A DNA stretch of 64,000 bases. Source: Endomychus coccineus. Its lineage: Eukaryota; Arthropoda; Insecta; Coleoptera; Endomychidae. The notes under the pieces were generated by a model, which worked only from the letters and a program-made list of their open reading frames with translations, searched no databases and was not told where the DNA came from. Location of the stretch: the NCBI GenBank assembly GCA_958510875.1, contig OY294070.1, forward strand, positions 114,184,703 through 114,248,702. The letters are read 5' to 3'. The position numbers and the translations under genes are program-made. Of this stretch, positions 8,842 to 62,584 are shown piece by piece (within the stretch, counting starts at the first letter, position 1; the number at the start of each line of letters is the position of its first letter).

Positions 8842-8906
8842 TCATATATTAATAGCGTAGCCGACGAGTTCAATAGATAAAAGTTGGGTGTTGGTTTGAG
8901 TATCGT
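8842..8906 (-). CDS. Gene A candidate terminal exon
   Basis: A strong acceptor (CTCGCCTCTTTCAG) opens a phase-1 frame of 20 codons (DTQTNTQLLSIELVGYAINI) ending in TGA at 8842. With this exon the eight gene A exons sum to 516 bases, that is 171 residues plus stop, in one frame. No homologue is visible in genes B or C and I found no AATAAA within 500 bases downstream (one reads at about 8010), so the assignment is by position and phase only. Confidence 0.4.
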
Positions 8907-9100
8907 CTGAAAGAGGCGAGACTATAGATATGCTAAAAACTTTAACAATTATTGAAAATTATGTAGTTTGGCTGTGATGAGCTTAGGAAAAACCGTGCAA
9001 AGTTCAAAACTGAAATGTTTTGTGAGTAATGGACCGGCAGGTCACTATAAGACAACCGAGTAGGCCGATGTCGTCCGGGGTAAGCCTAGTTTTCACTTAC

Positions 9101-9154
9101 CTGTTGTTGTTGTTACCTCATTCGCTATTGTTGATGTTGGCGCAGCATCAGTAT
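9101..9154 (-). CDS. Gene A micro-exon (54 nt, threonine-rich)
   Basis: Acceptor ATTTTGTAG and donor GTAAGT bound 54 bases in phase 1 to 1, encoding TDAAPTSTIANEVTTTT. The first half is the SAAPTS motif. The extra length is an ACA (Thr) codon run that could be replication slippage. The intron beyond the acceptor (AATATAACAAATTACTG) matches the introns beside the 12.9 and 12.5 kb exons. Confidence 0.68.
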
Positions 9155-9164
9155 CTACAAAATA

Positions 9165-9740
9165 TAACAAATTACTGCCCTTAAGAGATTAATAATTAGT
9201 AGAATACGATTTGAAACTTCATTATCTGCATTACTCGAGAGAGAACTGACCAAGCGGGGCGAAAAAAGATGTCTCTGCGAAACGTCAGGTAAACGGTGGA
9301 CCACATACCGTTTACCCATAAAAACCACGACGCACCTGGTAAAACAGGTAACACGGGGAGCTGAGAGTTGGCTATAGCCCAGATGGGGCAATGATATAGT
9401 ATAGCGAGCAGCGCCCGTGAATGAAGGTCCGCCTAAGTAGTCCTTCTAGGGTAAGGGAGAAAAGGCAGCTGCCTTTGCGTGAGTAAATGCTGTATCACAT
9501 GGCTTCACCCCTAAAGTCCGGTGTCTGTGCTTTTTATCCCAGGTTTCCGGGTAATGGATTCGCTGCCAGGGCAATGATATGTGGGTAGGCCGACGGCTAC
9601 TCGTCAAACGGAAGCTGTTTGACACTGAGCACGAGTAGGCAGGGGGAGAGGGGCCCAGATGGCTTAAGATACGATTTCCTCTCCAAATACGGCGTTGGTT
9701 TCTGGTGAGCAGTGACGTGCTGCTGAAAGTGAGAGAGGAC
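9165..9740. other. GC-richer repeat DNA, unassigned
   Basis: From about 9270 to 9740 base composition is clearly less AT-rich than the neighbours. No protein motif is recognised in either strand. It directly abuts the 3' tail of a minus-strand retrotransposon, so it may be an older inserted element. Confidence 0.35.
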
Positions 9741-10300
9741 AATCAATCAATCAATCAATCAAAGCGAGGGCGGACCATTCCGGAGCACTTAGACCGCTCG
9801 ATTGGGTTCATTGTGCGCCCCTTGACACAAGAATCAGTTCAGCAGGCCTAAGGCAGGCTCTTATGGCTTCAAGCGGCATATGTGTGCTGCCGAGGTGTGT
9901 AGCCTGAGTGAAGCCAGTGCTGGACATTCTGCCAGGATGTGAGAAGAATTTTCATCCACCTCTCCACATCGTAAACTGCGTCTTCAACAATGCCCATTGT
10001 GTGTAGATGTTTATTCAGATGACAGTGTCCTGTGAGGAGTCCTGTCACCAGTTTAAGGCCTTTCCTGCCCATAGAGAGTAAAGTTTCAGCGAGTTTATGC
10101 GAGAACTGCCTGATATGGAGATTCGCTTGTCTCATGCCGGAGAACCATGCCAGACCGAGAGCCACTGTCTATCCAGAAGCTTCTCGACGGTGTGGAGCCC
10201 GGATAGGGCAAGCCAGACGCTTAGAGTTCACTGGGCGGGTAAGCGGGGGTTTAGTCCTTCGAAGTTCTTATCGTGCATGGTATATGGAATAACTCGCGCG
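9741..10300 (-). mobile_element. Non-LTR retrotransposon 3' end (jockey-like), tail (TTGA)n
   Basis: The minus strand encodes the region after the RNase H domain: GMRQANLHIRQFSHKLAETL, then LKLVTGLLTGHCHLNKHLH, then a broken Cys-His block (…DENSSHILAECPAL in mixed frames). This LTGHC-LN-HLH region followed by CxxC...HxxxxC is typical of jockey-group elements. The 3' end is marked by five TTGA repeats (9741-9762 read on the minus strand), the simple-repeat tail usual for such elements. Frameshifts show it is dead. It lies in a gene A intron. Confidence 0.75.
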
Positions 10301-11040
10301 ACGTGTCATTATTTCATGCTGATCATATTAGTCCAGGCAATGGTTCAAATTACCAATCGTCGTGATGGATCCTTATTTTTCGTCAAACTTGGTGAGTAGG
10401 TTTATACCGCCTTGAAGTTAGAAAACAGTGAAAATGTCTAAAAAAACAGATAGTGTTCTGATATTCTAGGATCTAAATGAACTCCTTCACTCCATCCACT
10501 TTTCAAAAAAAAATCCATTCCCCTAGAATCCAGTCGCGTCAGCGTATCTTTAATTGGGTAAAATTGAAATGATCATTCAGAGGTGTTCCGGGTCGCTCAT
10601 TATCAATCCGTCATTGAATTTCTGAATTCAGAATGGATAAAAAATGGCTTCTTTCTCATAATGGCTTACCTACTCCAAAAATTAAAATCAATCGTTAAAA
10701 TATAACTTTCAACCATTTCGAATTAGGAAATTTCAATGACGAATCCGTAATTAGTGACCTAAAATACCTTCGGATTTCATTGAAATCAGGTTGATTCAAC
10801 ACGACTTATCTTAAATTTCTCAAAGAGAGTCGGCATCAGATAGCTGCGGAAAAATCACCCATAACTCAGAAATTATGCATTTTGAGAAAATTATGATCAA
10901 TGGAAAAAATTAATTTCATCATCGTATAAAAGGGGGTTGTAACTCAGAAGGGAGGCATGCAAAATGACAAGAGTACATACATTTATGTTGATTCCAAAAA
11001 CCCAAGAATACCATTCGTCTTTATTCGGACAGGTTTTTAC
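10301..11040. other. No gene recognised
   Basis: AT-rich intron-like DNA without domain or repeat that I can identify. Confidence 0.4.
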
Positions 11041-11052
11041 AGTAATCCAAGC

Positions 11053-12481: not shown

Positions 12482-12523
12482 CTTTTGGTTCCTCTTTTGC
12501 TGATGTCTTCGCAGCAGAATCTT
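12482..12523 (-). CDS. Gene A micro-exon (42 nt, duplicate copy 2)
   Basis: Forty-two bases between TTTTGCAG and GTAAGT, phase 1 to 1, encoding DSAAKTSAKEEPK. The sister exon at 12935 has three codons changed or shifted (A-S against A-K), while splice sites and exon length are kept. Conservation of frame and splice signals between the copies supports real coding use. Confidence 0.75.
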
Positions 12524-12934: not shown

Positions 12935-12976
12935 CTTTTGGTTCCTCTGACGCTGATGTCTTCGCAGCAGAATCTT
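12935..12976 (-). CDS. Gene A micro-exon (42 nt, duplicate copy 1)
   Basis: Forty-two bases between TTTTGCAG and GTAAAT, phase 1 to 1, encoding DSAAKTSASEEPK. It is nearly identical to the next exon at 12482, including several hundred bases of flanking intron, so the two arose by a recent tandem duplication with a period of about 453 bp. Confidence 0.75.
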
Positions 12977-13245: not shown

Positions 13246-13287
13246 TAGTTGTTTTCTTTGCTGGTGATGTCGGCGCAGCAGATTTTC
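13246..13287 (-). CDS. Gene A micro-exon (42 nt, SAAPTS type)
   Basis: Forty-two bases between ATTTTGCAG and GTAAGT, phase 1 to 1, encoding GKSAAPTSPAKKTT. One of a series of exons with a S-A-A-P/K-T-S core followed by a charged tail. The closest relative in gene C is at 34603. Confidence 0.72.
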
Positions 13288-13299
13288 CTGCAAAATATA

Positions 13300-15735
13300 T
13301 CAGATTACTTACAAAAGAGAACTGATAACTGGTATAAAATGCTCTAGGACGAACAGGACAACACGTCTATCAGTTCCAGAAAGTTTGTTTAATTTGAAAG
13401 GCGTGACTCTCTCTTTTTTGATAATAGCTGCACAACTTCCGAAGCAAGTTCAGTTTTATCGTTACTGAACAAAACGTTTTGAATGTCGATAACCTTTCTA
13501 AACATGTCCCCCATACCTTGATAATTGATGTGCGACTTTCAGGTTCAGGTTTCTGCTCAATAATTACGCATTTGATGCAAAGAGCACATATATGTCGTTT
13601 TGCAGGGGAAATTACATTTGTAGATTCAAGTGATTCTTGCGATTAAGGTGGTTGGTACCTCTGTTAGGTACGTTTATATTGAGAGCTTCCAAAATAGGTG
13701 GTGTACCACTTTGCTGCACAATCCATGAATTGCAGACAGAAGAGGTATACTAATTGTGCTTTAAGAAGTTTCGTAACTTGATTGGGAACGAAAGAATCCA
13801 GAGAATCTTTATGACAGACGATGGTTCTCTCGAAAGGAATGAACAGAAAAAAGTCTGGGCTGGTAATGTGCACGTCCAATATCCTACGAGCTGTGTGGCT
13901 GTGGGAGTATTCCAATAATATTGCAACTAATGACCGAAGAGCATTGATGCTCTCGTTCTGCGATGTTCTTTCAGCTCAGAACGAATTTGACTGAACTGAA
14001 ACAAGACATGTTATGCACTCACCCTAAAGTCGTCAAATATATTTTGTTTCTTGATTATTCCAAAAAGCAACACTGGATTAGAAAAGTTGAGTGGTGCCAC
14101 GGTTTTCGCAAAGAATATACCACAAGAGGATATAACTAATACACACAACATTATCGAGGTTTCCATCCGTATATTCAAGGATCAAAGAGGTGCAAAGCTT
14201 TCAACGCAACTTTGTTTGCGTTTTATTGGAAAAATTTTATGAGCAAAAGATATACTCATTTACGAATGGACGTGATATGGAACTTCATCATTTATTTGAG
14301 AAGACATTTCATCAAGACCTGCCTTATTGCTGTGCAAAAAAGAGGACAGATACAATATTTGAAGTCGCACCTTAAGAAGCTAGCAATCTTTTGTATACAA
14401 TTAACATAGAAATTGAGCAATGCGCTTAACCAGATGGAGTAGGAGGAAAATTCTGCGAACATCTTTGTGCAGTTTACAACACAGGTGTTGATTTCCAGAC
14501 TACCTCACATCTGCTATTGTCAGACCGTGTTGAGCTTGCCAATTTGGCAATTGAGAAAAATTTTGATAACACCTTTTTCATGGGTATGGAGGAAACGAAA
14601 AGTGAGATCATACAATCACCATCCTGTGGTCACCGGCATTTCGAATAGACTATACGAAGTGAACTAGATGATTATATTGTTCAAGCTGAAGACATGCAAC
14701 CGTCAGATGATTCTTCTGATGCGATAGCTGATGAGGAGTTTAACGCTGAACTTACATCGTTTTTCAGGATAATTCAATGAAACGTCATATCTTCACAGAG
14801 TGTCATCCTTCAAAATTTATGCTGAAGGACATAAAGACATAAAATCAAAGATGAACAGTATTAAATGTGAACAAGGTTATTATGAAATTTGTTCACAGAT
14901 GAAAAATATAAGGCCTGGGAGACGGGTCAAAGTCCAACAAATATTATTGCGCACCAAAATAAAAGAGAACTGCCAACAGGCATTATATTGATGCAGGCAG
15001 TTAGACCAGCTAACATCGAACTGAGGACGAAAGTCAATAAGAAGAAAGAAGATGCATGTCTCGCCTCCCAGATACCATGTTTGATATGGCTTGTACCTAC
15101 ATAGAATATTCTGATGTTTTGAAGAGGATGTTTTGTGTTTTTATTTGTTTCGTTCTCAAGATTATAATGTTCTTGTGCTATATGGATAACAAATTTCAAA
15201 TAGATACTACTGTGAATCATAATTTCCTGACATATATTAAGAAGGTGAGTCATGTCTCCCTGAATTACGTTTATTATGTTATTTAAAAAAAATTCGATAG
15301 TTACACCCTATACTATGTGATATGAAATTTCATCCATATCATGAAATCAAACAGTACTATGTTGTTATCAGTTTTATGTTATGAAGTCATTGGCTATAGA
15401 AATCTCAAGAACCAACAGCTTCAGATTTTTCCCTAATTTTCAGTGGCCCGCCGCGGCCGAACAACTCAACTTTTTAAAATTGTTAGAGTCTTGGCAGATC
15501 TATAGTCCAGCTCCTTTTGAACGATATCTCAACCACCACCCTATCCTCTGTACTTTTCTCGATCGAACCCCTGACACCCCCTTTACACTACGCTATTGAT
15601 ATATAGATACATGGAAATGACATCCACATAGAAGTGTTCAATTTTATAGTATGGAACCATTATTCTTAATCATCAATGAAACCGTTATTTCCTAGTATGA
15701 CTTAGCTCAAATTGCCAACCAAGATAAATGTCAAC
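13300..15735. other. Unassigned; possible decayed transposon at 14.05-15.10 kb
   Basis: Several overlapping plus-strand frames between 14051 and 15104 (for example FNATLFAFYWKNFMSK near 14200 and ELRTKVNKKKEDACLASQIP near 15020) look like fragments of one broken coding region, but I cannot name the family. The rest (13300-14000, 15250-15735) shows nothing I recognise. Confidence 0.3.
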
Positions 15736-15739: not shown

Positions 15740-15772
15740 CTCCTGCTTTCTCTTTCACAGCACCGAATGTTC
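15740..15772 (-). CDS. Gene A micro-exon (33 nt, TFGAVKEKAG)
   Basis: Acceptor ATTTTTCAG and donor GTAAGT bound 33 bases in phase 1 to 1, encoding TFGAVKEKAG plus shared codons. It matches the gene C micro-exons at 34120 and 37415 (RTFGSGEVIIKKAK, RKFGSIEGIIKKAK) in sequence, acceptor and donor. Confidence 0.7.
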
Positions 15773-17674: not shown

Positions 17675-17839
17675 TTTTGATAAACTTATTTGTACTCTCT
17701 AATATGTCTCTGGAATAGTCCTTGAATTGTCTGAACAGGAATCGCTTCTGCCTTTGAGATGCCAGATGTGCAAGAGTCCCGCCTGAATCGGATTCTCCAA
17801 TAGCGTTCCATTTCTTTATGACTTGTGGGAGACCGAAAC
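17675..17839 (-). CDS. Gene A core exon: furin site and amphipathic peptide
   Basis: One hundred and sixty-five bases are open in the frame set by exon 1, with acceptor TTCTACTCCAG and donor GTAATT, phase 1 to 1. The 54 residues contain FGLPQVIKK near the start, then RQKR (a furin-type R-X-K-R site), then FLFRQFKDYSRDILESTNKF, an alternating hydrophobic and charged stretch. The pattern matches the gene B core (LGYPQVIAK, RQKR, then a stretch ending in KFIR), which establishes the two as paralogues. Likely a pro-peptide cleaved in the secretory pathway. The donor is weaker than the GTAAGT used elsewhere in the family. What the mature peptide does is unknown. Confidence 0.72.
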
Positions 17840-20442: not shown

Positions 20443-20515
20443 TGCTTTCCAACTCAGCTGTTACGACCACAATAATAAATGTGAGAATCAGGGATACACA
20501 TATAGCAGTTTTCAT
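20443..20515 (-). CDS. Gene A exon 1: signal peptide of secreted micro-exon protein
   Basis: Seventy-three bases encode 24 residues plus one base. The peptide is MKTAICVSLILTFIIVVVTA followed by ELES: a basic N-end, a long hydrophobic core and an Ala-X-Ala-like exit, so a classical secretion signal. It stops exactly at a GTAAGT donor in phase 1. The start is this ATG rather than the upstream in-frame one at 20536, because it alone gives a standard signal peptide and matches paralogue B (MKTLVRV...). It joins the core exon at 17839. Paralogues B, C and D have the same one-exon signal peptide of 24-25 codons ending in phase 1. Confidence 0.75.
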
Positions 20516-24697: not shown

Positions 24698-24724
24698 TCG
24701 TTTCCTCCTCATCAGGAACATTAC
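24698..24724 (-). CDS. Gene B micro-exon (27 nt, NVPDEEET)
   Basis: Twenty-seven bases between ATTTTGCAG and GTGAGT, phase 1 to 1, encoding NVPDEEET. The smallest exon in the cluster, strongly acidic. Phase, acceptor type and order between the core and terminal exons support it. Confidence 0.68.
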
Positions 24725-26410: not shown

Positions 26411-26587
26411 TTCTGATAAATTTCCCTGTATCTTCCAGTACGTCGGAAATGAAGATATTCATATTTCCCAAGAGAGATCGCTTTTGCCTTATTTGTGCTG
26501 AGATGGGAGATACCTCACGTGCAATGGATCTGTCAACGCTCCGCTTTGCTATAACTTGGGGATATCCCAACCCCTCCATAGCAGTAT
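26411..26587 (-). CDS. Gene B core exon: two basic sites and amphipathic peptide
   Basis: One hundred and seventy-seven bases between acceptor ATCCTTCAG and donor GTAAGT, phase 1 to 1, 58 full codons. Residues in order: TAMEGLGYPQVIAKRSVDRS, a segment with IAREVSPISAQI, then RQKR (furin-type), then SLLGNMNIFISDVLEDTGKF and IR. The LGYPQVIAK and RQKR blocks and the terminal KFIR align with gene A (LPQVIKK, RQKR, KFIK). The predicted product after cleavage is a peptide of about 23 residues plus the short tail exons. It is almost certainly secreted; function unknown. Confidence 0.8.
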
Positions 26588-29121: not shown

Positions 29122-29197
29122 TGCCTTCCAGTTTTTCTGCTTTGAAAGCCAAAAGACTGAACGTAAAAAGCAGGAATACACGAACAAGAGTTTTCAT
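29122..29197 (-). CDS. Gene B exon 1: signal peptide of secreted micro-exon protein
   Basis: Seventy-six bases encode 25 residues plus one base, MKTLVRVFLLFTFSLLAFKA followed by EKLEG, then GTAAGT in phase 1. It has a basic N-end, hydrophobic core and small-residue cleavage region. It matches gene A exon 1 (MKT..V...L.F) in length class, phase and the acidic E-L-E-x residues after the signal. The frame is too short to appear as a long ORF; the longer frame on the same DNA is a shadow. Gene C starts 4.5 kb away on the opposite strand, so genes B and C are divergent. Confidence 0.78.
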
Positions 29198-29299: not shown

Positions 29300-30100
29300 A
29301 TAAAATGATCTAGCACAATTATCATCAACCTATTGTTTCATTTCATGAAACATCAGAGCAATAAATACTTCAATTATTGAATCTAATCAAAAAAATAATG
29401 CTATTCAAATAATAATTCCACGGTTCAGTATAATAGCGAAAAGGCTATGATTAATTGATCACGTGACTTCCTTCACATTTGTTCCAAACCATCTTTCAGA
29501 CAACCCTGTGATCTGTATATAATTGTAGGAACAGAAAATATATCGGAAAATAAACTAAACTTTAATTTCAGAGTGTACTAAAAAGAATTGAAAAATCGTG
29601 ATCTCCGACCTCAATAACTCCATATACCAATTTTAAATAGAATCGGACCATAATCACAAAACTCGTCCGTCATCTTGGAGTCGTCATATTGTGTTTTGCT
29701 CTCACGAATTTGACGTAATATATTGTCACCCGAATGATAAGCACCTGCCAAATTTCAAGTTAATCGGACGACTAGAAGTGGGTCGAAATTGAATTACAAA
29801 ATTTCAACAGAATGTATAAATAGATTGATCGATAGATAATGGAAGGTTCTGTCAGGTTCAAAACCCTTCTGGCTATGATTTGACTAACAAACGTGTAGCG
29901 CATATTGAGCATTGATGGTATGGCAAGCGTTACTGTCACTTTCGAGGCATGTCGATCGATTCGATTTTATGGTATGTTGTATTGGTAGCCCCTCTCGTTA
30001 ATGTAAGGGAGGTTGATTGCTCCAGATTATTCGGTTTTCCAGTGATAAAATATAATGTGGTAATATGCCGTGTTAGCACTAGAAAAATTAGTCTAAATTC
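29300..30100. other. Divergent intergenic region between genes B and C, left part
   Basis: No gene recognised. The stretch 29560-29830 reads like decayed repeat DNA. Confidence 0.35.
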
Positions 30101-33121: not shown

Positions 33122-33675
33122 TCATAGTTTGTTTTCATCAAATTTGGAAGCTTCGTGTTTTTTTAGTGGACAATCACCCGAGTTTTAGTTCTAATATTGT
33201 CGGAAGAAAGCATCTCCATGAATTCAACGATTATTGAGAACAACATTCATGAAAGTACATTCAGTACTGATTTGATATCCTCTGAAGCATCAAGATTGAA
33301 TCGAACATGATTCAAACACGTATGAAATATCTATCAGATGATAGATTCTCTTCACTATAATTTAATATATTTCAAATGCTGGGGATTCTTATAATGGGAG
33401 TCTTGCGACGAGTTTTGTTCTTCTCAACATTATATAATAATATAAGAATCCTATCTGAAAAGTGTAACCATTCTTAATTGTATCGCTATTCTCCATTTAA
33501 TTTAATTAAAATTATAATTGTTTGCATATTAAATCAAACAATAGATCATGCTTAAGTGGGATTTTTCATTCCAATTTTATCTTTAATGTTGATTAAAATT
33601 CCAATAGGATTCAAAAAGGCCCAAAGTGACAAACGAAATATTCTTAGCCAGTCTTTGTAACTCAGAACAAGTACA

Positions 33676-33751
33676 ATGAGGAGTGTTTTCTATGGTTGCT
33701 TAGTTCTTACTTCCATATTTGTGGTTATAACTGTTGCAAAATTAGAAAAAA
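33676..33751 (+). CDS. Gene C exon 1: signal peptide of secreted micro-exon protein
   Basis: Seventy-six bases encode MRSVFYGCLVLTSIFVVITV then AKLEK plus one base, ending at GTGAGT in phase 1. It has a basic start and a hydrophobic core with small residues at the end, as in a secretion signal. It is nearly identical to gene D exon 1, and 100 bases upstream are conserved between the two (including 'GGATTCAAAAAGGCCCAAAGTG'), which should hold the core promoter and 5' UTR. No clear TATA box is visible. Confidence 0.78.
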
Positions 33752-34119: not shown

Positions 34120-34161
34120 GAACATTTGGTTCTGGGGAAGTGATCATAAAGAAAGCGAAAA
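34120..34161 (+). CDS. Gene C micro-exon (42 nt, TFGSGEVIIKKAK)
   Basis: Forty-two bases between GGTATTTTTCAG and GTAAGT, phase 1 to 1, encoding RTFGSGEVIIKKAK when joined to exon 1. The exon and about 250 bases of following intron are duplicated at 37415. The acceptor and first codons also match the gene A exon at 15740 on the other strand. Confidence 0.75.
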
Positions 34162-34602: not shown

Positions 34603-34644
34603 AAACTTCTACTGCACCAACATCAACCGTTAAGGAAGACAAAA
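34603..34644 (+). CDS. Gene C micro-exon (42 nt, STAPTS type)
   Basis: Forty-two bases between ATATTTTGCAG and GTAAGT, phase 1 to 1, encoding KTSTAPTSTVKEDK. Same class as the gene A SAAPTS exons: identical length and phase, same acceptor sequence and charged end. Confidence 0.75.
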
Positions 34645-37414: not shown

Positions 37415-37456
37415 GAAAATTTGGTTCCATAGAAGGGATAATAAAGAAAGCAAAAA
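37415..37456 (+). CDS. Gene C micro-exon (42 nt, KFGSIEGIIKKAK)
   Basis: Forty-two bases between AGTATTTTTCAG and GTAAGT, phase 1 to 1, encoding RKFGSIEGIIKKAK. It duplicates the exon at 34120 with surrounding intron ('GG.CAGGTCAGACT', 'ATTAAAAATAACA.ATCCA', 'AATAAG.GTGATAA.AACATAGT'). Changes between the two copies keep the frame and the basic end, which supports coding use. Confidence 0.75.
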
Positions 37457-40816: not shown

Positions 40817-41059
40817 TTACACAGACACTCCTCGGAAAAGCTAACACTATCGTTGCAAAATACCCATGGATTCTTAAAGGTGTGAGTAATGTTTCCACGA
40901 AAATTCAGGAAGTTAAAAACGTTTTCGGAAAAAAATCAGAAGGAAAAGAAAAATCAGACAAATCAGAAGAACGAAGAAGGAGGAAGCGAGGCATAATACA
41001 CCACGTGGGTGATATTGTGGGGTCTGCATTTAGGCGGTTCATGCACTGGATTTTACATG
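40817..41059 (+). CDS. Gene C core exon: furin site RRRRKR and amphipathic peptide
   Basis: The acceptor TATCTTCTCTAG and donor GTAACT bound 243 bases, phase 1 to 1, 80 full codons. In order: TQTLLGKANTIVAKYPWILK, a lysine-rich helical stretch (VSTKIQEVKNVFGKK), an acidic and lysine-rich run (SEGKEKSDKSEE), RRRRKR, then GIIHHVGDIVGSAFRRFMHW and ILH. The layout of basic cleavage site followed by about 23 hydrophobic-amphipathic residues equals genes A, B and D, though sequence identity is low. With the upstream KRRKKR it could release two peptides. It is longer than the cores of A and D (165 nt). Confidence 0.75.
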
Positions 41060-41239: not shown

Positions 41240-41287
41240 GACTAAATATGCTCGACCATCATCATATGGAAATGAAGCGTGATTTAG
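41240..41287 (+). CDS. Gene C micro-exon (48 nt, histidine-rich)
   Basis: Acceptor TTTTTTTTACGTTAG and donor GTAAGT bound 48 bases in phase 1 to 1, encoding GLNMLDHHHMEMKRDLG including shared codons. No paralogue exon is visible; support is splice sites, phase and position right after the core. Confidence 0.62.
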
Positions 41288-45190: not shown

Positions 45191-45710
45191 TCAATTTTTG
45201 TATGAAATAGAAATGAACAAAAACATAAATTTCTCAGATATGCACATTAGGGTTCAGATGAAAAATCATTACATCATGACTTACTTATGAAGTTTCATCT
45301 CAAGGATATCTTCACTTTAATTCAGTTTCCACAACAAGTTATAAAAAGTTTCATGAAAAGCCTTACAGATAGCTTCATTTATGAATAATATAAATGGTAA
45401 TACAGATAATTCCATAACATTATCATACATTCCGGAAACCTCAGACAAAATCAAGAAAGTATGACGTAAATGTTGCACATACACCTACTAAGTGTAAATT
45501 TTTTTCACATTCAAAAAAAGATCGACAAACCCACACAGTATATACATTCAATTGCTCAGATTGAGATGGGTCTTATACAAGAATCTCTCACAATATTTCC
45601 AAACAAGAATGTATGGTCATAAGTATAGTACTTAAAGAAAAAGTTTCGAAACTCCTACCGCCCTTGCTAAACACTGTTTTGATTATAACCATCAGTACGT
45701 TTACAAAAAT
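45191..45710. other. No gene recognised
   Basis: AT-rich sequence between a retrotransposon remnant and the 433-bp array. Confidence 0.35.
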
Positions 45711-47453
45711 TTGAAACTTTTACCTGAAGGAACCAATTATTGTGAGAGATATCTTGAAGATGACTCACATCTGTAAATCATAGAATGGATGTTTTGATCA
45801 TTGAGTCTTATTTATATCAATTTAAATTAAATATTATCATTATTATTCTTTCTTGTATGTTATTTATCGATTTTACTGCTCTGCTCTGTTGTAGGTTCCT
45901 CCCCAAACTATGATGTATATTGAAATTGACCAGACTAGTGCATAATAAATCATTATAAGTTGGCGTTCATTTAATACGCATAATTTATAGAATAAATAAA
46001 TAAAATACCTAGTTTTTTTATTGATTAGTTTGATATGCTCAATCCACTTCAAGTGCTGCAAGATTTTACTCTCTTCAATATAGTAAAGTCGCAAATTATC
46101 CTAGAGCAGCAAATATTACGTATTTTTACAGTACATTTTTCTGGTGAATTTGAAACTTCTAGCTGAAGGAACCAATTATTATGAGAGATATCTTGAAGAT
46201 GACTTACATCTGTAAATCATAGAATGGACGTTTATTCATTGAGTCTTATTTATACCAATTTAAATTAAATATTATCATTATTATTCTTTTTTGTATGTTA
46301 TTTGTCGATTTTACTGCTCTATTGTAGGTTCCTCCCTAAACTATGATGTATATTGAAATTGACCAGACTAGTGCATAATAAATCATTATAACTTGGCGTT
46401 CATTTAATACGCATAATTTATAGAATAAATAAATAAAATACCTAGTTTTTTTATTGATTAGTTTGATATGCTCAATCCACTTCAAGTGCTGCAAGATTTT
46501 ACTCTCTTCAATATAGTAAAGTCGCAAATTATCCTAGAGCAGCAAATATTACGTATTTTTACAGTACATTTTTCTGGTGAATTTGAAACTTCTAGCTGAA
46601 GGAACCAATTATTATGAGAGATATCTTGAAGATGACTTACATCTGTAAATCATAGAATGGACGTTTATTCATTGAGTCTTATTTATACCAATTTAAATTA
46701 AATATTATCATTATTATTCTTTTTTGTATGTTATTTGTCGATTTTACTGCTCTATTGTAGGTTCCTCCCCAAACTATGATGTATATTGAAATTGACCAGA
46801 CTAGTGCATAATAAATCATTATAAGTTGGCGTTCATTTAATACGCATAATTTATAGAATAAATAAATAAAATACCTAGTTTTTTTATTGATTAGTTTGAT
46901 ATGCTCAATCCACTTCAAGTGCTGCAAGATTTTACTCTCTTCAATATAGTAAAGTCGCAAATTATCCTAGAGCAGCAAATATTACGTATTTTTACAGTAC
47001 ATTTTTCTGGTGAATTTGAAACTTCTAGCTGAAGGAACCAATTATTATGAGAGATATCTTGAAGATGACTTACATCTGTAAATCATAGAATGGACGTTTA
47101 TTCATTGAGTCTTATTTATACCAATTTAAATTAAATATTATCATTATTATTCTTTTTTGTATGTTATTTGTCGATTTTACTGCTCTATTGTAGGTTCCTC
47201 CCCAAACTATGATGTATATTGAAATTGACCAGACTAGTGCATAATAAATCATTATAACTTGGCGTTCATTTAATACGCACAATCTATATAATAAATAAAT
47301 AAAATACCTAGTTTTTTTATTGATTAGTTTGATATGCTCAATCCACTTCAAGTTATTGTATCTGCAAGATTTTACTCTCTTCAATATAGTAAAGTCGCAA
47401 ATTATCCTAGAGCAGCAAATATAACGTATTTTTACAGTACATTTTTCTGGTGA
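45711..47453 (-). repeat. Four-copy tandem array, 433-bp unit with RT thumb piece
   Basis: Units start at 45711, 46150, 46583 and 47016 (spacing 439, 433, 433). The last three are almost identical; the first is slightly diverged. Each unit encodes on the minus strand the same reverse transcriptase segment (HLKWIEHIKLINKKTRYFIY ... YYALVWSISIYIIVWGGTYN), the thumb region of a non-LTR element. The repeat also holds AATAAATAAATAAAATACC. An additional partial unit begins at about 48352. Near-identity shows recent amplification by unequal exchange or similar, not separate retrotransposition. Confidence 0.88.
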
Positions 47454-48351
47454 GTTATTAGCGAGAAAGAAATTCGAACGCACGTTGTATATATGATCTC
47501 TTAGTACATGCGCGAACTTGCGCTAGTAAAATTTGAGTTTCAAAGTCGAAAAAAAACATCTAAAATGATGTCTCATAATTGGAGATTTTAACCTCCGACT
47601 CAAAAAAGTGTCTTCTTTAAAATGCACCATGGGCAGAAACAAAAATATCGCATAGCTCAAAATCTATCAGGTAAAATAAAATTTATTCTTATGAAGAAAG
47701 ATTCATCCGAATAACTGTTATAGCTTCCGAGAAAATCGATTTATAAAATGGTCAAAAAAATTAAAATGACCAAAAACTGGTCATCAACTAGCTACAAGTG
47801 ACTGATCGATATAACCAAAGGTAGGTCTTTTCATTACAAACAATTTTAGTCCAAGTACGACCCTCTAAGCTTTGTACTTGCAGAGATATTCAAGGTTTCG
47901 TAGTTGCCACCTAACCTCACTTTTAACGAAAACGTTCGATTTATTTTTTCCAAAGAAAAACATGAATCAAGCTCAATCATGAGCAACTTTTTTCATAGGT
48001 TTCATTATTCTATCTCATAATGCGAGTGAGAAAAAGAATTTCAAAGTTGTGACTCGTTTTGGGCCCTAGGGCCCGTCAAACTCTCTTTGCGCATGCGCAG
48101 TTGGTGTAGGGTTATTTATTTTGATAATATCTATAACTTTTATCCTAAACTTTTATCGATCCGACGTCATCTATAAAACTTAGTTCTGAAAAACTGATTT
48201 TAAAAACAGTTTTTCATAACTGGGGGGGAGGGGGACCCCAGTCCCCCCTCAAAATATGTGGGTCTTTTTTGGCTTCCCAATATCTGATAAATCGACCCTC
48301 AGATCTTAAATGACGGGAAAACAATTTTTTTCTCCTCCTACAACTGGACTA
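47454..48351. other. Insert or spacer within the 433-bp array region
   Basis: Non-coding sequence with blocks such as CTATAACTTTTATCCTAAAC and a G-rich run GGGGGGGAGGGGGACC near 48222. It separates the array from a fifth, partial unit and is probably a separate insertion. Confidence 0.4.
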
Positions 48352-51290: not shown

Positions 51291-52475
51291 ATATTTTTAT
51301 TGAGGTCTTTCTTTTTCATGTTTACTCATGAAGCTTTTTTTAGTTCGAGATTAGTTGCAAATGGGTTGAATTATTCTTGGGAGTTCTTCATCACTCCTTT
51401 TTCGTGTTTGGTTCTCCCTCTAGTCTTCCCAAGAGGATAAAATGAATCTCCAGCCTTTTTTCAATCTTGATTGATTGTTAATTCGCAAAATCTGGGTTAA
51501 TAGTATGTCAAATTAAATGAATATTTTCGTATAAATAGTTCATTGTAACCAAAATTCTCTAAGAATTTGAGTTTTTAATCAAGGGTTCTCTCGTTATGAA
51601 AAACAGGATGTAAGATGAAAGATTTCACATTGATAGAAGCATAAATCTGGAATTAAAAATTGTGTCAACGTGACCGTCACGATTCTTTTAAATTGTTTAA
51701 ATCATATAATCACGTTTACCACTCAAAAAAAAGTTCATTACACATTAATCATAGAAGATATCACATTATTCAATCCAACCCAATCATTAGCAATAAAAAA
51801 GAGCCTTGAGAAGGTTATTTTGAGATTTCTTAAGTATTATGAAATAGTAAGAAAAATTGTATTTGGTGAAGGTGTTGTTTCAATTATTGTCTGCAAATGT
51901 AATTCATGACATAATCTTCTGGAATACATTTATTTCCACCCTATCAGGATGAAGTTCCGTTGATAAAGAAGAGTCATTGTTGATTGGGAGAAACAGTTTA
52001 TTGTTTTTGGGCTAACAAAACTGTTTTGGTATTCTTTGGAGTATTTTCTCATCATAACTATTTATGAATTTCAAGATGAACGCGTTGGAAAATTAAATAA
52101 TTTCCAACAAGTTACCTTCATGAATAATCGTATGTCGATGAGTAATAATTGCGAAATTAAAAGGGGCGGTATCCTGGTTTCTGAGGAAGAGAAAATCATT
52201 TTAGAAGTGAGGCGTCAAAAACACTAAGGCAATGACGAATTCAAAATGAGCTTGGCCTTACTAAGAGTTTACTCCCAATTGAAGCGGTTGACATCTGATA
52301 ATTGCAACAAAAAAGAGACTGAAACAATATTTAAATTGCAAAAATCAATTTTTAAGTCGTAATGCTAGAGCGGAACTTTCAGTTTTCCCAGGTACTCGAG
52401 TTACCGTTCTCCAGGACGGCATAATGAAAATTTTAACAACCTGTGTTCATTATTATGTATAAATTAAATTTTCTC
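51291..52475. other. No gene recognised between genes C and D
   Basis: Open frames at 51670-51909 and 52036-52227 (plus) show no motif. AT-rich intergenic DNA. Confidence 0.4.
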
Positions 52476-54870
52476 ACCCTGTATGAAAGACATTATCATT
52501 TATGGTTTGCCCTCTTATACTCTTTTGGAGTAGATTCTTGTCAAGTAGTCAGGTTTTCTATAAAGCAATTAATTTTAGAAAAATTAAATAAAAACCTTCA
52601 TTTTCTTTGACTTCATTTTCCTTCAAAAGTATCAGCTATCATTTTTTGAATTCTCTATCGTACCACCGTCTTAGTTTTTCCTGTATGTATTTTCGGAGCT
52701 AGAACGACTCAAAGTGATCACTTTTTCAAAAATACACACGCTCAAAAAAATACTCGTCATTTTCTGATTCTCGCCAATTTCAATGAGGGTTGGGAACACA
52801 TCAAAAGGAAGATGTCTACAAAATTTCATCTGAATTAATAAATTCTTTCGACAGTTATCGTGTATGAAAGGGAAATGTTGAAAAATTGCACATTTGACGT
52901 AATAACTCTAAAACAAAAAATCGGATCGTCAGAAACAGATGACCGTCGGCTGCATTCAAGTACTTAAAAACGTGCCAAATCTCAAATTTTCACTTCAAGC
53001 AGAATGATTAGCGTTAAAAATACGTTCCGAAACACGTCGGCGGCAATGTTTGTAAAAAGGCAAGTTAAATAAAAGCCTGTAGTGATATTGTTATATTGCC
53101 ATGTTGGAATTGTAATATATTTCACAACTCTGTTTTATACCGACACTTACTGTCAGGCTGACTTTCAAAACTTGTTTTAAACTGATATTTGTCAGATGAA
53201 CTATCAAAATTTTGTCACAGAGTAAAGACATAACATAGACAGTGACGTCATATCAATAAATGCGAAGGAAGCGTTTATACCCTTCAAACACGCAAATCCT
53301 GTTGTAAAAATATTACACCTTTTGAACAAAATCTAGTTGATGAAGGAGTTGAAATTATATAGTCCGTTTATCCATGTTCAAATTGTGATATAACTTCTTC
53401 ATCCACTGCAGCGATTTAGTGCGCCTGTGCGACTGAACCTCAAAAGTTAGTAGTAGTTAACTTGAATCCGTAAGATGTTGCTAAAACGACGTCATTACCG
53501 ATTAAATAACATGTATGTTCTACATTGACGTACCGGACCTTCATGTTTTCTATAGATTTAGTAAACAAAAGAGCAAACCCCCGACAAAGCTCTGCTCCAT
53601 CACTTTTTACTTGGAAGTTGTAGCGACTTGTATTGTGTCAACCGATCTCCCAACGTCTCTCATTGTTTCCTTTTATTTTTGTCATTGTTGCGTAGTACAA
53701 CGAGCCATTAAAATTTTCCGCCAAGTACGGTTGGACTTGCTTATTACGAAGATTCCATTCTATCTGTTGTTACCTTTATTATCTTCGATAGTTGTCAAAC
53801 TGTGGAGTGTCAGCATTGAAATAACGCAGAAAATCGCTTTCTCGTAGGAAATGGTTGGTTGAAAAGGTATTAGAAGATTCTGCAAGTTTTTGCTCAGTAT
53901 ATAGAAAGAGCTATGTATAAGCAATTATTTATCACCTATTATCCCTCATCGATTTAATCGACCCTGTCTGTTTAGATATTCATACCATTGTCGTACTTGA
54001 ACCAGATTTATGAAAGCTCCTCTTTATTCAATGAAATCATAGACAATATAGAAAGAATGAAAATTCAAAGCTGATTTATTGTGCACATTTTACTGACATT
54101 AAGAACTATTATTATAATATTTTGTTATCATCAAATTTAAAAGCTCCGTGTTTTTGTTAGTAGACAATCAACAGAGTTTTGTGTCTAATATTGTAGCAAG
54201 AAAGTTATTCTACAAATTCAGTTGTTATTGAGACCAACATGTACGGAAATTCATCCAGTACTAATCTGCATTTGCTGAGCCATCAGGAATACTAAAATCG
54301 AATATGTGTGGAAAATATATTAGAAGATAGTAATGTTTTCACAAAAATTCAATTTCTCTCTGTTATAATTTAGTATATTTCAGATGCTCACAATTATATC
54401 ATAATAAAAAAAGTCTATTTGAAAGTGTAACAATTCTTGATTTTATCGCTATTCTCCATTTAATTCAATTAAAATTATAATTGTTTGAATATTACATTAA
54501 ATCAAACAATAGATCGTTTATGTGGGATTTTTCATTCCAATTTTATCTTGAATGTTGATTAAAATTTCAATAGGATTCAAAAAGGCCCAAAGTGACAAAC
54601 GAAATATTCTTAGCGAGCCATTGTAACTCAGAACAAGTACAATGAAGAGTGTTTTCTATGGTTGTTTAGCTCTTATTTCTACATTTGTTGTTATTAGTGC
54701 TGCAAAATTGGGAAATAGTGAGTCCTAGATTTAATCATTAACTGCTGCAATGAAGAAATTTTGTGAATTAAATTCTGTTGTGAAGCACAATTTTTTTTCG
54801 AAATATCTGGTAGATACTCAACTAGAACTAACTAGAATAATGCGGTTTTTCAGAGTCACCTAAAACTTGC
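52476..54870 (+). repeat. Segmental duplication, copy 2 (5' region of gene D)
   Basis: Collinear with 30107-33970 (see there), ending a little after the gene D first exon within intron 1 ('GGTAGATACTCAACTAGAACTA' occurs in both copies). It lacks the two inserts of copy 1. The open frame at 53515-53847 is conserved only in part in copy 1 (frameshifted), so it is not taken as a gene. Confidence 0.82.
54642..54717 (+). CDS. Gene D exon 1: signal peptide of secreted micro-exon protein
   Basis: Seventy-six bases encode MKSVFYGCLALISTFVVISA then AKLGN plus one base, ending at GTGAGT in phase 1. Nearly the same as gene C exon 1, with changes that keep the hydrophobic core; the cleavage region ISAAK is a better signal-peptidase site than that of C. 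The next family exon in phase on this strand is at 62420, giving a first intron of 7.7 kb filled with transposons. Confidence 0.75.
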
Positions 54871-54879
54871 TCGACATCA

Positions 54880-55045
54880 TAATTTAGCTCAGCAAACAAG
54901 AGAAAAAGATTATGTGCGAGTGGCGATGATGAAGCTATGATGAACATCTTCAACACTGTATTTTTCTTTCTTTATTTCTCCTGAACACTTCAAAATTGGA
55001 GAATAATTTTGATAAATTTACAACATTTGTAACAGCCAAATGATC
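54880..55045. other. Gene D intron 1, unassigned
   Basis: AT-rich; no feature seen. Confidence 0.3.
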
Positions 55046-56336: not shown

Positions 56337-58524
56337 ACAGGGTGTTCCATCTCAGACGAGCCACCCCGTATATTTCTTATCCCATAGTGAGTGGAAAAAT
56401 CTCCCGAAACATGTCGAATGATTTGGTTTGGGGGACATCTTTTGACGTATATTTGAGGCTTGAACGAGCAACCCCCTAATAGGGGCCGCTTCAACCCCTC
56501 AAAATTGAATAGGGGAGAGTGGTTGAGTGATACGTCATTTGAAAGGTCTTGGAAGCCTCTTTACAACGGTGTATGAAAAACGTAAATTTGATGAACCGTT
56601 TTCGCCAAAAATTAATTTTTTTTGCTCGAATGCGTCACCTTGAATATTTTGGTTATTTATACAATGTACAAGCTCATTTCTATTAAGCTTTTTTAAAAAC
56701 TTAAACAATCTTCAAAAAATCACATCCGTAAAAAAATTGAATTGTGTTGTCATGCTTACAATGCAAAAAATTAAATCTGCGTGTTAAATCAAATGTTCAA
56801 ATTGTCCTCCATTGACTTCTATACAATAATACAATCTTGACTGAAAACCGTCTCTAACATCGTTCAGCATAATTGGAGTTATTTGACGACACTCATTTAC
56901 AATTCGTTGGCGTAGTTCGTCCAAACTTTCAGGCTGAGTCACAAAAATCTTGGACTTAAGATGTCCCCACAAGAAGCAGTCCAGAGGGTTCAGGTCAGGA
57001 GATCGGGCAGGCCATTCCATAGGACCTCTTCTTCCGATCCAACGACCGGGGTATTGCAAATTGAGGTATTGGCGAACTGGTGCGGCGTAGTGAGGAGGAG
57101 CTCCGTCTTGTTGGAAATGCAATAGTTGTTCAAGTAGTAGAGGATCGTTTTCTAATTGTTCAGTTATTAACGGATCAATCACATTTTCCAACATTTCAAG
57201 ATAAATTTCGCCATTTAAATTACCAGGAATAAACAGAGCTCCAATTAGGTGGTCTCCCAAAATTCCTACCCAAACGTGTAGCTTCTCCCGATGACGAGTG
57301 TGAGCTTCTCGAAATACATGAGGATTTGTATCGCTCCAAATTCTACAGTTATGCCCGTTAACCTATCCATTAAGTAAAAAAGTGCATTCGTCAGAAAAGC
57401 AAACGTTGTACCAGAAATTTGGGTTATTGTTGATACGCTCGATCATAATTTCGCAAAACTCTTGCCTTCGATCCCAATCATCATCATTTAATTCCTGAAT
57501 TAATTTAATTTTGTACGGATGGAATTTGTGCTTATGAAAAAATTCTGAAAACTTTAGATTGGCTAATACCGGAAGCTGCAGAAAGTTATCGTACATATTG
57601 CTTGTTTGGCATAAGTTGGACATGTCCCAATACCGCCACAGCTGCTCCTTCATCATCAACAATTCCAATGGGTATCCTTTTTTTATCCATTACTGAACCC
57701 GTCTCCACAAATTTTGAAATCAATTTCATTACGTACTTATGGCGAACGCTACGTTCAGGATGGTTTTTGTTAAATATCCTTGCAGCCGCTCGGGCATAAT
57801 TTTGATTTTGGTAATAAAGGCTAACCAGCTCAACACGTTCTTGCAATGTGTACACCATATTTTTTGAAATTTTAAACAAATCAGCAAAGTAGTAACTCAA
57901 CAGATTGATTAAAATCCTGAAATGATCGAAGAAACGTTAAAACCAGATAAACACCTTCTAAAAACAAAAAATGAAGACAACATAAGGAAATGTTTTTCTG
58001 TTTTTTTATTTATTACTTTGAGAGAATGTATTATTGTATGGAAGTCAATGGAGGACAATTTGAACATTTGATTTAAACACGCAGATTTAATTTTTTCCAA
58101 CGTAAACATGACAACACCATTCAATTTTTTTACAAATGTGATTTTTCGAAGATTGTTCAACTTTGTAAAGAAGGCTTAATAAAAATGAGCTTGTACATTG
58201 TACAAATAACCAAAATATTCAAGGTGGCGCATTCGAGCAACAAAATTAATTTTTGGCGAAAACGGTTAATCACATTTACGTTTTTCATACACCGTTCTAA
58301 AGAGGCTTCCAAGACCTTTCAAATGACGTATCACTCAACACCTCTCGTCTATTCAATTTTGAGGGGTTGAAGCGCCCCCTATTAGGGGGTTGCTCGTTCA
58401 AGCCTCAAATATACGTCAAAAAATGTCCCCCAAACAAAATCATTCGACATGTTTCGGGAGATTTTTCCACTTACTATGGGATAAGAAATATACGGGGTGG
58501 CTCGTCTGAGATGGAACACCTTGT
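56337..58524 (-). mobile_element. mariner-related element, DD41D type, with ~490-bp terminal repeats
   Basis: The left terminal repeat (about 56337-56832) begins ACAGGGTGTTCCATCTCAGA. The right one (about 58028-58524) ends in the complement, with GGAACACCTTGTA. The match between arms extends roughly 490 bp with indels. The transposase gene lies between on the minus strand, and its last 16 or so codons fall inside the left repeat, so the right repeat holds a mirrored copy of the coding end. The left flank (56327-56339) carries an extra reversed copy of the terminus, CTGAGATGGAACA, perhaps from a neighbouring insertion. Confidence 0.85.
56784..57858 (-). pseudogene. DD41D mariner transposase, two lesions
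   Basis: The N-terminal helix-turn-helix begins at 57858 (MVYTLQERVELVSLYYQNQN) and continues RSVRHKYVMKLISKF. The catalytic blocks are VCFSDECTF (first D), LHFQQDGAPPHYA (second D) and WPARSPDLNPLDCFLWGHLK (third D), with 41 residues between the second and third catalytic D. That spacing is reported for the rosa group, not for Tc1 (DD34E) or classic mariner (DD34D). One frameshift near 57630 and one in-frame TAG after FLLNG (57363) inactivate it; otherwise the reading is well preserved, so the loss is recent. Confidence 0.82.
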
Positions 58525-59100: not shown

Positions 59101-59129
59101 TTCATGACACGTAAGCTATAAATGATAGA

Positions 59130-60751: not shown

Positions 60752-61435
60752 TTATTGTTGATTTAATTTATCATTGACTATACTAAAATTGAATGTACAA
60801 TTGTGACACTCTTTTATTATTATTCCTGAACCTGATGGACGATCAGTAGATTTATCTAACATTAATTCCCCCGAATATTGGAAATCTACAGAACGAGATG
60901 TAGATGGTCTTGAGAATATTCTCTTGGTAGTTTCAATCTTATTGTTGATTGAATCATCTATGTAGCCTTCTGCTACATTGTTACTTTTCCATCCACCATG
61001 TTTTTTGAGTTGTATTAGGTCACCTCCACCATTCACCAATAAAGAAGCAGAGGTTCGTCGGAGACAGTGTCCAGTATATAAATTATGCTCGGGCAATTTC
61101 AAATATTCAGCAATGTCACTGGGAGTCTTGCCGATTGTATTCATACCCACAACTTGTTTCATACATCTACCTTTTTCATAACGTAAAAATAGACGTTGGA
61201 CAGTATGGTTATTCAGACAATGTTTTCTGAGTGCAATATATTTTTTACAAATTGAAAGATAATCAACTGAATTCTCTTCATTATGACCAACAATCGTAAA
61301 AACACGGCTTATTCTCGTTTTTGAATCGGGAATTCGGACTATTAAAATAGAATCCTTATCTTCTATGTCACCAATCTCCATTTTGACCAACTCATCGCGC
61401 CTGCAGGCACCAGCAATACCCATAATTAGAATAAC
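60752..61435 (-). CDS. Crypton-type tyrosine recombinase, exon 2 (catalytic domain)
   Basis: Two hundred and twenty-seven codons plus stop, beginning VILIMGIAGACRRDELVKME at the acceptor TTTTTTTTATAG. The catalytic residues of tyrosine recombinases are present: the first Arg in GACRRDEL, the H-x-x-R box in YTGHCLRRTSASLLVNGG, the H/W block in LKKHGGWKSNNVAEGYI and a Tyr nucleophile candidate in EGYID. The C-terminus (after KRIFSRPSTSR) has a Cys-His group (KECHNCTFNF). With exon 1 the product is about 369 residues, usual for arthropod Crypton proteins. The frame is fully intact, unlike every other transposase here. It lies antisense in gene D intron 1. Confidence 0.82.
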   Translation of the reverse strand, partial: VILIMGIAGACRRDELVKMEIGDIEDKDSILIVRIPDSKTRISRVFTIVGHNEENSVDYLSICKKYIALRKHCLNNHTVQRLFLRYEKGRCMKQVVGMNTIGKTPSDIAEYLKLPEHNLYTGHCLRRTSASLLVNGGGDLIQLKKHGGWKSNNVAEGYIDDSINNKIETTKRIFSRPSTSRSVDFQYSGELMLDKSTDRPSGSGIIIKECHNCTFNFSIVNDKLNQQ

Positions 61436-61555
61436 CTATAAAAAAAACTGCAATTAATAGCTATTCCAAATGTCTATGCTAACCAAATTGCACTAAATTC
61501 AAAAAAATACTAACCGCTTCTCAAACTACTAAGAGCATGAAATATTAAAATTTAC

Positions 61556-61981
61556 CTTTTTTAGTAGATATTCTTCATCGGGCGCTTCTTGTAAAAATTT
61601 GTGAATATCTTCAGTGGTGAATGTTTTGGATTTTTTCGCTTTATATCCAACAGACTGTTTCTTCAGAAATGCGATAAGTTTAGGATACTTATTGATTTCG
61701 ATGTTATTTTTAACATTCAAGCATGTCCGTATCATCGAATACGTAGACCAAAGAGTTGATGACTTACAAATCAATGATTTTTCTCCAAAATAAGCCAGTA
61801 ATACGTTTTCTGAATACTTATTCACCTTCTTCGACTGGCACCACGTCATGAATTTACCGTATTGTAATTCATATTTCTTCCTTGATTTCTCTGGTAGGAG
61901 ATTCAAAGTAACAATTTTAGCACTTTCTGCTACATCAGGAGGAGTGTTTGATAATTCACTGTCACTATCATCAATCATCAT
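61556..61981 (-). CDS. Crypton-type tyrosine recombinase, exon 1 (core-binding domain)
   Basis: One hundred and forty-two codons from the ATG at 61981 to a GTAAAT donor. After an acidic start (MMIDDSDSELSNTPP) it reads LLPEKSRKKYELQYGKFMTW, NVLLAYFGEKS, STLWSTYSMIRTCLNVKNNI, PKLIAFLKKQSVGYKAKKSK and FTTEDIHKFLQEAPDEEYLL, the helical SAM-like N-terminal DNA-binding domain of Crypton recombinases. A 120-bp intron (61436-61555) with good splice sites joins it in phase 0 to exon 2; without splicing the frame ends after NISCS. Two adjacent ATG codons make the exact start uncertain by one residue. Confidence 0.8.
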
Positions 61982-61989
61982 GCAGAAAT

Positions 61990-62415
61990 ACGTTGGAGAA
62001 GCGAGCGTTTTCCAAATATTTCCGCTTTAGAGCGCAAATGCTGTCACAAAATGACATTTCACGGAAAACGTCAACTTTGCGTTGAAATCTGAAAGCGTCA
62101 AAGGCTACTTTGTTAAGCGTTTGTAGAAAAATATCATTTTAAGACTTAACATAGTACACCCCTGTTTGAGTTACTACTTATTTTATGATTGGAAAATATT
62201 TTCGCAATTATTCGCTTCGGGGTAATTTCAGAAAAATACCTGGGTTGTCTCGAAGACGCTAGAAAAACTACACATTTTATTGGTTGAGAAATTTAGTGGT
62301 AGCTTTTCTTTTCAATTCATTACAACTTAGGGATTAATTATTCATATTTCATAATATACTATGATAGACTAGGGATCTGTGTGAATCAAATATGTTGGAA
62401 AGAAATTTTTTTTCT
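61990..62415. other. 5' flank of the Crypton gene
   Basis: No coding sequence seen. Contains words such as CGTCAACTTTGCGTTGAAAT and a block near 62220-62240 (CGGGGTAATTTCAG). The right boundary of the element could not be fixed. Confidence 0.3.
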
Positions 62416-62419
62416 CTAG

Positions 62420-62584
62420 CTGATCATGGGCTTCGTGTAGACCCAAAACCAGAGCCATTGAAATATGAATCGCGAGAAGACGGAGCAACAATGGTGAGGA
62501 GGAAAAGAAGCTTGTTCCAAGCTGCGGGGATATTCCTACATATGATTGGCGCAGTCGCAGATTCATTTTACAGTCTTATTCCTG
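62420..62584 (+). CDS. Gene D core exon: furin site RRKR and amphipathic peptide
   Basis: The acceptor TTTTTTTTCTCTAG and donor GTAAGT bound 165 bases, the same length as the gene A core, in phase 1 to 1. In order: DHGLRVDPKPEPLKYESRED, GATMV, RRKR (furin-type), then SLFQAAGIFLHMIGAVADSF and YSLIPG. The hydrophobic stretch is the least charged of the four paralogues and might insert in a membrane. The frame fits gene D exon 1. Downstream exons, including the tail, must lie beyond 64000; none is convincing before it. Confidence 0.75.

What the first reader, a model, noticed from the sequence alone, without database searches (positions are those of the whole stretch)
8842..62584. Cluster of four secreted micro-exon genes with furin-cleaved amphipathic cores
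Seen: four signal-peptide exons (20443-20515, 29122-29197, 33676-33751, 54642-54717), each followed on its own strand by a core exon with a basic RxKR-type site and a terminal amphipathic stretch. Cores A and B align (PQVI-K, RQKR, KFI-K/R); exons 1 of C and D are near-identical. Known: R-X-K/R-R is the furin consensus, so mature peptides of about 20-30 residues are plausible. Inferred: a lineage-specific family of secreted effectors, defence peptides or venom-like peptides. I know no described family with this combination. Function cannot be read from sequence alone.
Basis: partly seen in the sequence, partly recalled or inferred. Interest (0 to 1): 0.92.

Follow-up and report, generated by a model that had tools for sequence, protein, structure and literature searches.

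The report
Insect family of small-exon secreted peptides
A stretch of insect DNA, probably from a beetle, carries four related genes built from small interchangeable exons that seem to make secreted precursors with a helix-forming peptide behind a protein-cutting site; no relatives were found in the databases searched.

Summary
Four signal-peptide exons lie where stated, each ending after codon position 1; each is followed on its own strand by a core exon with R-X-K/R-R and 22-25 residues before the donor. Spliceable phase-matched exons: 14 rows on the gene strands, 1 antisense, mean 1.1 in 60 shuffles; with the cleavage motif 4 rows (3 cores), 0 and 0. The post-site stretches are more amphipathic than their own shuffles in 4 of 4. 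Cores A and B are homologous; C and D share the layout, hardly the sequence. Eight small in-frame exons of two kinds follow the core in A but precede it in C. Exons 1 of C and D are 83% identical, not near-identical. Two protein searches found no relative. Best reading: an orphan modular family of secreted precursors, cut by a furin-like enzyme to expose an amphipathic, probably membrane-active helix. It works like schistosome micro-exon or aphid bicycle genes; membership in either is not shown. There is no transcript evidence; splicing, 3' ends, cleavage and function are unproven.

The parts
20443..20515 (-). Gene A exon 1, signal peptide MKTAICVSLILTFIIVVVTAELES, ends phase 1 at gtaagt
17675..17839 (-). 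Gene A core exon (165 bp): PQVIKK ... RQKR + 22-aa amphipathic stretch; weak donor gtaatt
15740..15772 (-). Gene A small exon, 33 bp, RTFG type
   Evidence: homologue of C exon at 34120 with a 9-bp in-frame gap and both splice sites kept
13246..13287 (-). Gene A small exon, 42 bp, SAAPTS type
12935..12976 (-). Gene A small exon, 42 bp, SAAKTS type
12482..12523 (-). Gene A small exon, 42 bp, SAAKTS type; 93% to the previous one
9101..9154 (-). Gene A small exon, 54 bp, DAAPTST type
8842..8906 (-). Proposed gene A terminal exon (stop at 8842); weak: its start lies in a repeat shared with 15416-15541 and it is below the acceptor cut-off
29122..29197 (-). Gene B exon 1, signal peptide MKTLVRVFLLFTFSLLAFKAEKLEG
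26411..26587 (-). Gene B core exon (177 bp): PQVIAK ... RQKR + 22-aa amphipathic stretch
24698..24724 (-). Possible gene B small exon, 27 bp (NVPDEEET); weak
33676..33751 (+). Gene C exon 1, signal peptide MRSVFYGCLVLTSIFVVITVAKLEK
34120..34161 (+). Gene C small exon, 42 bp, RTFG type
34603..34644 (+). Gene C small exon, 42 bp, TAPTST type
37415..37456 (+). Gene C small exon, 42 bp, RKFG type
40817..41059 (+). Gene C core exon (243 bp): long basic proregion, RRRRKR + 23-aa amphipathic stretch; weak donor gtaact
41240..41287 (+). Possible gene C exon after the core, 48 bp, His-rich
54642..54717 (+). Gene D exon 1, signal peptide MKSVFYGCLALISTFVVISAAKLGN
62420..62584 (+). Gene D core exon (165 bp): RRKR + 25-aa amphipathic stretch

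Best explanation
The window holds a cluster of four paralogous insect genes (probably beetle) for small, secreted, fast-diverging pre-pro-proteins. Shown by sequence: a signal-peptide exon, a core exon with an R-X-K/R-R site followed at once by a 22-25-residue amphipathic segment that ends at the exon border, and, in A and C, small Ser/Thr/Ala/Lys-rich or RxFG exons that start at codon position 2 and are triplet-long, so that any could be added, skipped or reshuffled in frame. Inferred: after entry into the secretory route a furin-like convertase cuts after R-X-K/R-R and removes an inhibitory or carrier proregion; the freed N-terminus folds as an amphipathic helix, alone or with a flexible tail, and binds or perturbs lipid bilayers of a target outside the cell (microbe, prey, host or mate). 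Symmetric exons and segmental duplication let the family diversify quickly.
For: Four homologous signal exons with the same end phase. Excess of phase-matched spliceable exons over antisense and shuffles. Cores A and B homologous at protein level, E 7e-6 and 4e-5, and better conserved in the exon (69%) than in 60-base flanks (60-61%). Amphipathic segment after the site in 4 of 4, p 0.0002-0.015, Fisher combined 3e-8; higher moment as a group than after 13 other RxKR-like sites of the window (p 0.005; of 18 rows, one overlapping core C was dropped). A clean 9-bp in-frame gap with both splice sites kept between the A exon at 15740 and the C exon at 34120. pN/pS under 1 in 6 of 8 paralogous exon pairs.
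Against: No transcript. Net charges of +2, -1, +1, -1 are low for classic lytic peptides. The best-11-residue measure is not significant for C and D (0.067, 0.084), and D's moment (0.33) lies within the range at other RxKR sites (0.07-0.43). pN/pS is above 1 in 2 of 8 pairs, and the sums are pN 0.29, pS 0.42: weak constraint. Donors of cores A and C are weak. No convincing terminal exon. Module order differs between A and C, so the models may be wrong. Openness and triplet length of the small exons are partly built into the scan. Structure prediction was not obtained.
Confidence: 0.5

Rival explanations
1. Secreted pro-proteins of this architecture, but with a role that does not involve membranes, such as seminal-fluid, salivary or egg-coat proteins; the helix mediates protein-protein contact or folding.
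For: Low or negative net charge of B and D, weak constraint, orphan status; rapidly diverging secreted orphans are common among reproductive proteins (general knowledge).
Against: Amphipathicity is kept in 4 of 4 although the sequence is not, and it lies directly behind the cleavage motif.
Confidence: 0.25
2. Members of, or convergent with, the aphid-type bicycle effector families: small-exon effector genes expressed in salivary glands.
For: Exons start at codon position 2, as almost all internal bicycle exons do; signal exon; extreme divergence. If the core exon is skipped, the published classifier passes A and C (0.85 and 0.82, cut-off 0.72).
Against: With the core exon included A scores 0.14 and C 0.007 (C's last exon and gene length assumed). 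No cysteine outside the signal peptide (counts), so no CYC motif. Far fewer exons. Of 120 listed transposon relatives 10 name an organism: 9 beetles, 1 ant, no hemipteran.
Confidence: 0.1
3. Decaying paralogues: a formerly functional cluster now broken by transposons and losing exons, with some or all members pseudogenes.
For: Dense repeats, transposons within D's long intron, weak donors in A and C, unresolved 3' ends, weak constraint, unequal exon sets.
Against: Four of four signal and core exons are open with GT donors and, for the cores, AG acceptors, and the best-aligned small-exon pairs keep frame and splice sites; openness of small exons is partly a condition of the scan.
Confidence: 0.12
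4. Chance assembly: unrelated ORF pieces and splice-like signals in AT-rich DNA read as genes.
Against: Shuffle and antisense controls; homology among exons on opposite strands and about 20 kb apart.
Confidence: 0.03

Closest known systems
Schistosome micro-exon genes (MEGs, e.g. MEG-26, MEG-12, MEG-8.2)
   Same: Signal peptide mostly in the 5' exon, symmetric small exons (26 of 33 in MEGs 26-32), secreted products, several with amphipathic helices (passages of PMC4671649 and PMC5825161); MEG-8.2 helices 1 and 3 lyse cells (passages of PMC12998952).
   Different: MEG micro-exons are under 36 bp, here 33-54 bp plus a 165-243 bp core; 'furin' occurs 0 times in PMC12998952; flatworm, not insect. 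MEG sequences were not compared directly.
Aphid, phylloxera and scale-insect bicycle genes
   Same: Extremely divergent secreted effectors with small internal exons almost all starting at codon position 2 (PMC9168663, sections 6 and 17 read plus passages).
   Different: No cysteine in the mature part, few exons, a large core exon; 'furin' and 'amphipathic' occur 0 times in that paper; full models A and C fail its classifier. Bicycle sequences were not compared directly.
Linear amphipathic precursors of insect venoms and antimicrobial peptides (recalled, not fetched)
   Same: Signal peptide, proregion, short cysteine-free amphipathic peptide.
   Different: Low net charge in B and D, modular symmetric exons, in-frame tail exons in A. 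No Pfam match above its cut-off; C has a sub-cut-off hit to Antimicrobial17 (E 0.013, 15.9 bits, cut-off 25) in its proregion.

Membership tests
Schistosome-type MEG | Signal peptide in first coding exon | tested here: met
   (hydrophobicity scan; cleavage-site Ala judged by eye; no SignalP)
Schistosome-type MEG | Most internal exons under 36 bp and symmetric | tested here: not met
   Symmetric, but the scan required multiples of 3; only 15740-15772 (33 bp) and the doubtful 24698-24724 (27 bp) are under 36 bp; definition
Schistosome-type MEG | Alternative splicing of micro-exons | not testable with these tools
   no transcripts
Bicycle genes | Internal exons start at codon position 2 | tested here: met
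   definition. The scan allowed this phase only; a scan without length or phase condition (score 8.5) recovers 6 of the 8 small exons of A and C
Bicycle genes | Published gene-structure classifier, P at least 0.72 | tested here: not met
   A 0.14, C 0.007 with core; 0.85 and 0.82 if the core is skipped; C's last exon and length assumed (formula). B and D not scored: too few exons
Bicycle genes | CYC motif (absent from some divergent members) | tested here: not met
   One cysteine each in A, C, D and none in B; the three lie in the signal peptide
Linear amphipathic defence or venom peptide | Cationic amphipathic helix after proregion cleavage | tested here: inconclusive
   Amphipathic in 4 of 4, net positive in 2 of 4
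Linear amphipathic defence or venom peptide | Expression in venom gland, fat body or on infection; lytic activity | not testable with these tools
   Proxy only: strict kB motif upstream in 0 of 4 genes, loose form in C and D, which are duplicate copies

The most novel reading that the evidence does not exclude
A third, independent origin of the micro-exon secretome strategy (after schistosome MEGs and aphid bicycle genes), in an insect lineage outside Hemiptera: a cluster in which symmetric codon-position-2 exons are reshuffled on either side of a convertase-released amphipathic helix, so that splicing can choose among several helix-bearing products.
Probability: 0.3. Interest if true: 0.78.

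Novelty: new variant of a known kind. Interest (0 to 1): 0.6.

Why it matters
Secreted orphan families built from small exons have been tied to host interaction in schistosomes and aphids. A separate insect case with a built-in convertase site and a conserved amphipathic helix would suggest that this exon layout is a general solution for fast-evolving secretomes, and it gives four concrete peptides to test. Such genes are easily missed by gene annotation and by sequence search.

Tried and rejected
Rejected: chance; a known family (only sub-cut-off or weak matches, the best being Antimicrobial17 with C at E 0.013, 15.9 bits against a cut-off of 25); an immune promoter signature; strong positive selection on the C/D signal exon (dN 0.15, dS 0.38, although the exon differs more than its 5' flank, p 0.007, and not more than its 3' intron, p 0.31). 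Considered and not supported: tail exons of A being 5' exons of another gene, since the scans show no signal exon between 17675 and 15772 and no RxKR site with an open stretch below 8842 on the minus strand. Led nowhere: terminal exons (1 candidate beyond A's last exon, 3 after core A, 5 for B, 5 for C, 3 for D, none convincing). Ten paper searches listed no insect family that I could recognise as small exons plus a furin site; beyond the listings I read only parts of four papers (PMC9168663, PMC12998952, PMC5825161, PMC4671649). One listed paper on a sea anemone toxin family that mentions microexons (PMC10210398) was not read. Coverage of searches: searches were given gene A only (1 of 4); all four products; the alignment of four signal-plus-core products.
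Full report
Setting. The window is repeat-rich DNA of about 35% G+C with arthropod-type transposons: a DUF4817/DDE_3 element, a tyrosine recombinase and an RNase H fragment. Of the 120 listed of 488 relatives of the recombinase, 10 name an organism: 9 beetles and 1 ant. A beetle is therefore likely but not proven. No tRNA and no Rfam family at its gathering score was found. The genome of the window could not be searched.

Signal exons. C and D share 63 of 76 bases, with 95% and 88% in the 150-base flanks. They lie in duplicated stretches, 30087-33956 against 52452-54927, matching in pieces at 69-79%. A and B share a signal exon and upstream sequence (blastn over 303 columns, 61%, E 2e-10). pN/pS is 0.46 for C/D and 0.55 for A/B.

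Core exons. Phase-matched exons with an R-X-K/R-R site were found for A, B and D by scanning. After the site come FLFRQFKDYSRDILESTNKFIK (A), SLLGNMNIFISDVLEDTGKFIR (B), GIIHHVGDIVGSAFRRFMHWILH (C) and SLFQAAGIFLHMIGAVADSFYSLIP (D), each reaching the exon end. Hydrophobic moments at 100 degrees are 0.66, 0.45, 0.51 and 0.35, with p of 0.001, 0.015, 0.0036 and 0.0002 against 5000 shuffles of the same residues; by the best 11-residue stretch p is 0.018, 0.028, 0.067 and 0.084. Over the first 22 residues after 13 other RxKR-like sites of the window the moment averages 0.22, maximum 0.43; the four cores are higher as a group (p 0.005), although D alone is not (one of 18 rows, overlapping core C, was dropped). 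Net charges are +2, -1, +1 (with four His) and -1. Cores A and B share PQVI, RQKR and KFI and find each other by tblastn at E 4e-5 and 7e-6, whereas C and D as queries find no other core at E up to 1. C and D share with A and B only the layout.

Small exons. Eight further exons of 33-54 bp belong to two repeated kinds: RxFG...K-A-K/G and x-S/D-A-A-P/K-T-S (with variants). Their introns are partly alike too, so they probably spread by segment duplication. In A five follow the core; in C three precede it. The A exon at 15740 and the C exon at 34120 differ by a clean 9-bp gap with both splice sites kept; more distant pairs (A at 9101 against C at 34603, or A at 12935 against C at 34603) align with scattered gaps at base level. 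pN/pS is below 1 in 6 of 8 exon pairs examined (two signal, one core, five small-exon pairs; not all independent) and above 1 in 2 of the small-exon pairs, with sums pS 0.42 and pN 0.29. Constraint is therefore present but weak.

Chance. With fixed scoring, rows of spliceable exons open in the required phase number 14 on the gene strands (minus 8000-29300, plus 33600-63900), 1 on the opposite strands, and 1.1 on average (maximum 5) in 60 dinucleotide shuffles; rows with RxKR are 4 (A, D and B twice), 0 and 0. The regions were chosen knowing the genes. One of the 14 rows (47438-47449, in a tandem repeat) is not part of the models. A scan without the triplet and phase conditions gives 40 rows on the gene strands, 20 of them triplet-long, and 13 rows on the opposite strands, 4 of them triplet-long. 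Several of the other rows are longer or shifted versions that share a splice site, so the phase rule is a property of the paralogous exons rather than of every splice-like pair.

Orphan status. Gene A (430 candidates) and a four-sequence profile (140 candidates) gave no match among 5.8 billion proteins at E of 1 and 10. Pfam, NCBIfam and PDB gave only weak matches; the best is Antimicrobial17 in the proregion of C, E 0.013 and 15.9 bits against a cut-off of 25. If much of that protein collection comes from unspliced contigs (an inference from its sources), a spliced orphan could be missed.

Mechanism. Shown: a reading frame with a signal peptide, convertase-type site and amphipathic segment. 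Inferred: secretion, cleavage by a furin-like enzyme, helix formation and membrane contact. If A's tail exons are used, the released piece is up to 114 residues with the helix first and a tail rich in Thr, Ala and Lys (terminal exon doubtful); if they are skipped, it is 22-25 residues plus whatever the true last exon adds.

Comparison. Schistosome MEGs have a signal exon, symmetric micro-exons and, in several, amphipathic helices (PMC4671649 and PMC5825161, passages); MEG-8.2 helices 1 and 3 lyse cells and helix 2 does not (PMC12998952, passages). Bicycle genes have small exons that almost all start at codon position 2, which that paper calls phase 2 (PMC9168663, sections 6 and 17 and passages); this is the phase seen here. 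With that paper's published coefficients, A scores 0.14 and C 0.007 (cut-off 0.72) with the core, but 0.85 and 0.82 without it; if the same exons are counted under the other convention all four scores are below 0.001 (C's last exon and gene length assumed). No cysteine lies outside the signal peptide (counts). The present genes work like these families in layout, but membership is not shown.

Limits. No transcripts, no structure model, unknown species, and unresolved 3' ends. The splice scoring matrix was written from general knowledge of insect splice sites, not trained on this genome, and its donor part was relaxed after the first scan.

Noticed in passing
35177-36692: Two 606-base inverted arms, 99% complementary, 304 bases apart, within gene C's intron: a recent hairpin-type repeat or transposon.
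   Followed up: no
56337-58524: Transposon with long terminal inverted repeats (about 500 bases, 93%), coding DUF4817 and, below its cut-off, DDE_3 pieces in separate ORFs, inside gene D's long intron.
   Followed up: partly
60752-62026: Tyrosine recombinase (Phage_integrase) element, recalled as Crypton-like, ending about 400 bases before core D; of 10 organism-named rows among 120 listed relatives 9 are beetles and 1 an ant.
   Followed up: partly
45708-47479: 433-base unit repeated about four times; three copies 99-100% alike over 300 bases, the fourth 69%.
   Followed up: no
39514-40567: About 1 kb palindromic repeat with internal units of about 140 bases, ending 250 bases before core C.
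   Followed up: no
30087-33956 and 52452-54927: Duplicated stretches (69-79% identity in pieces) carrying the signal exons of C and D but not their downstream exons; the homology breaks at 33956/54927, just before C's exon shared with A.
   Followed up: partly
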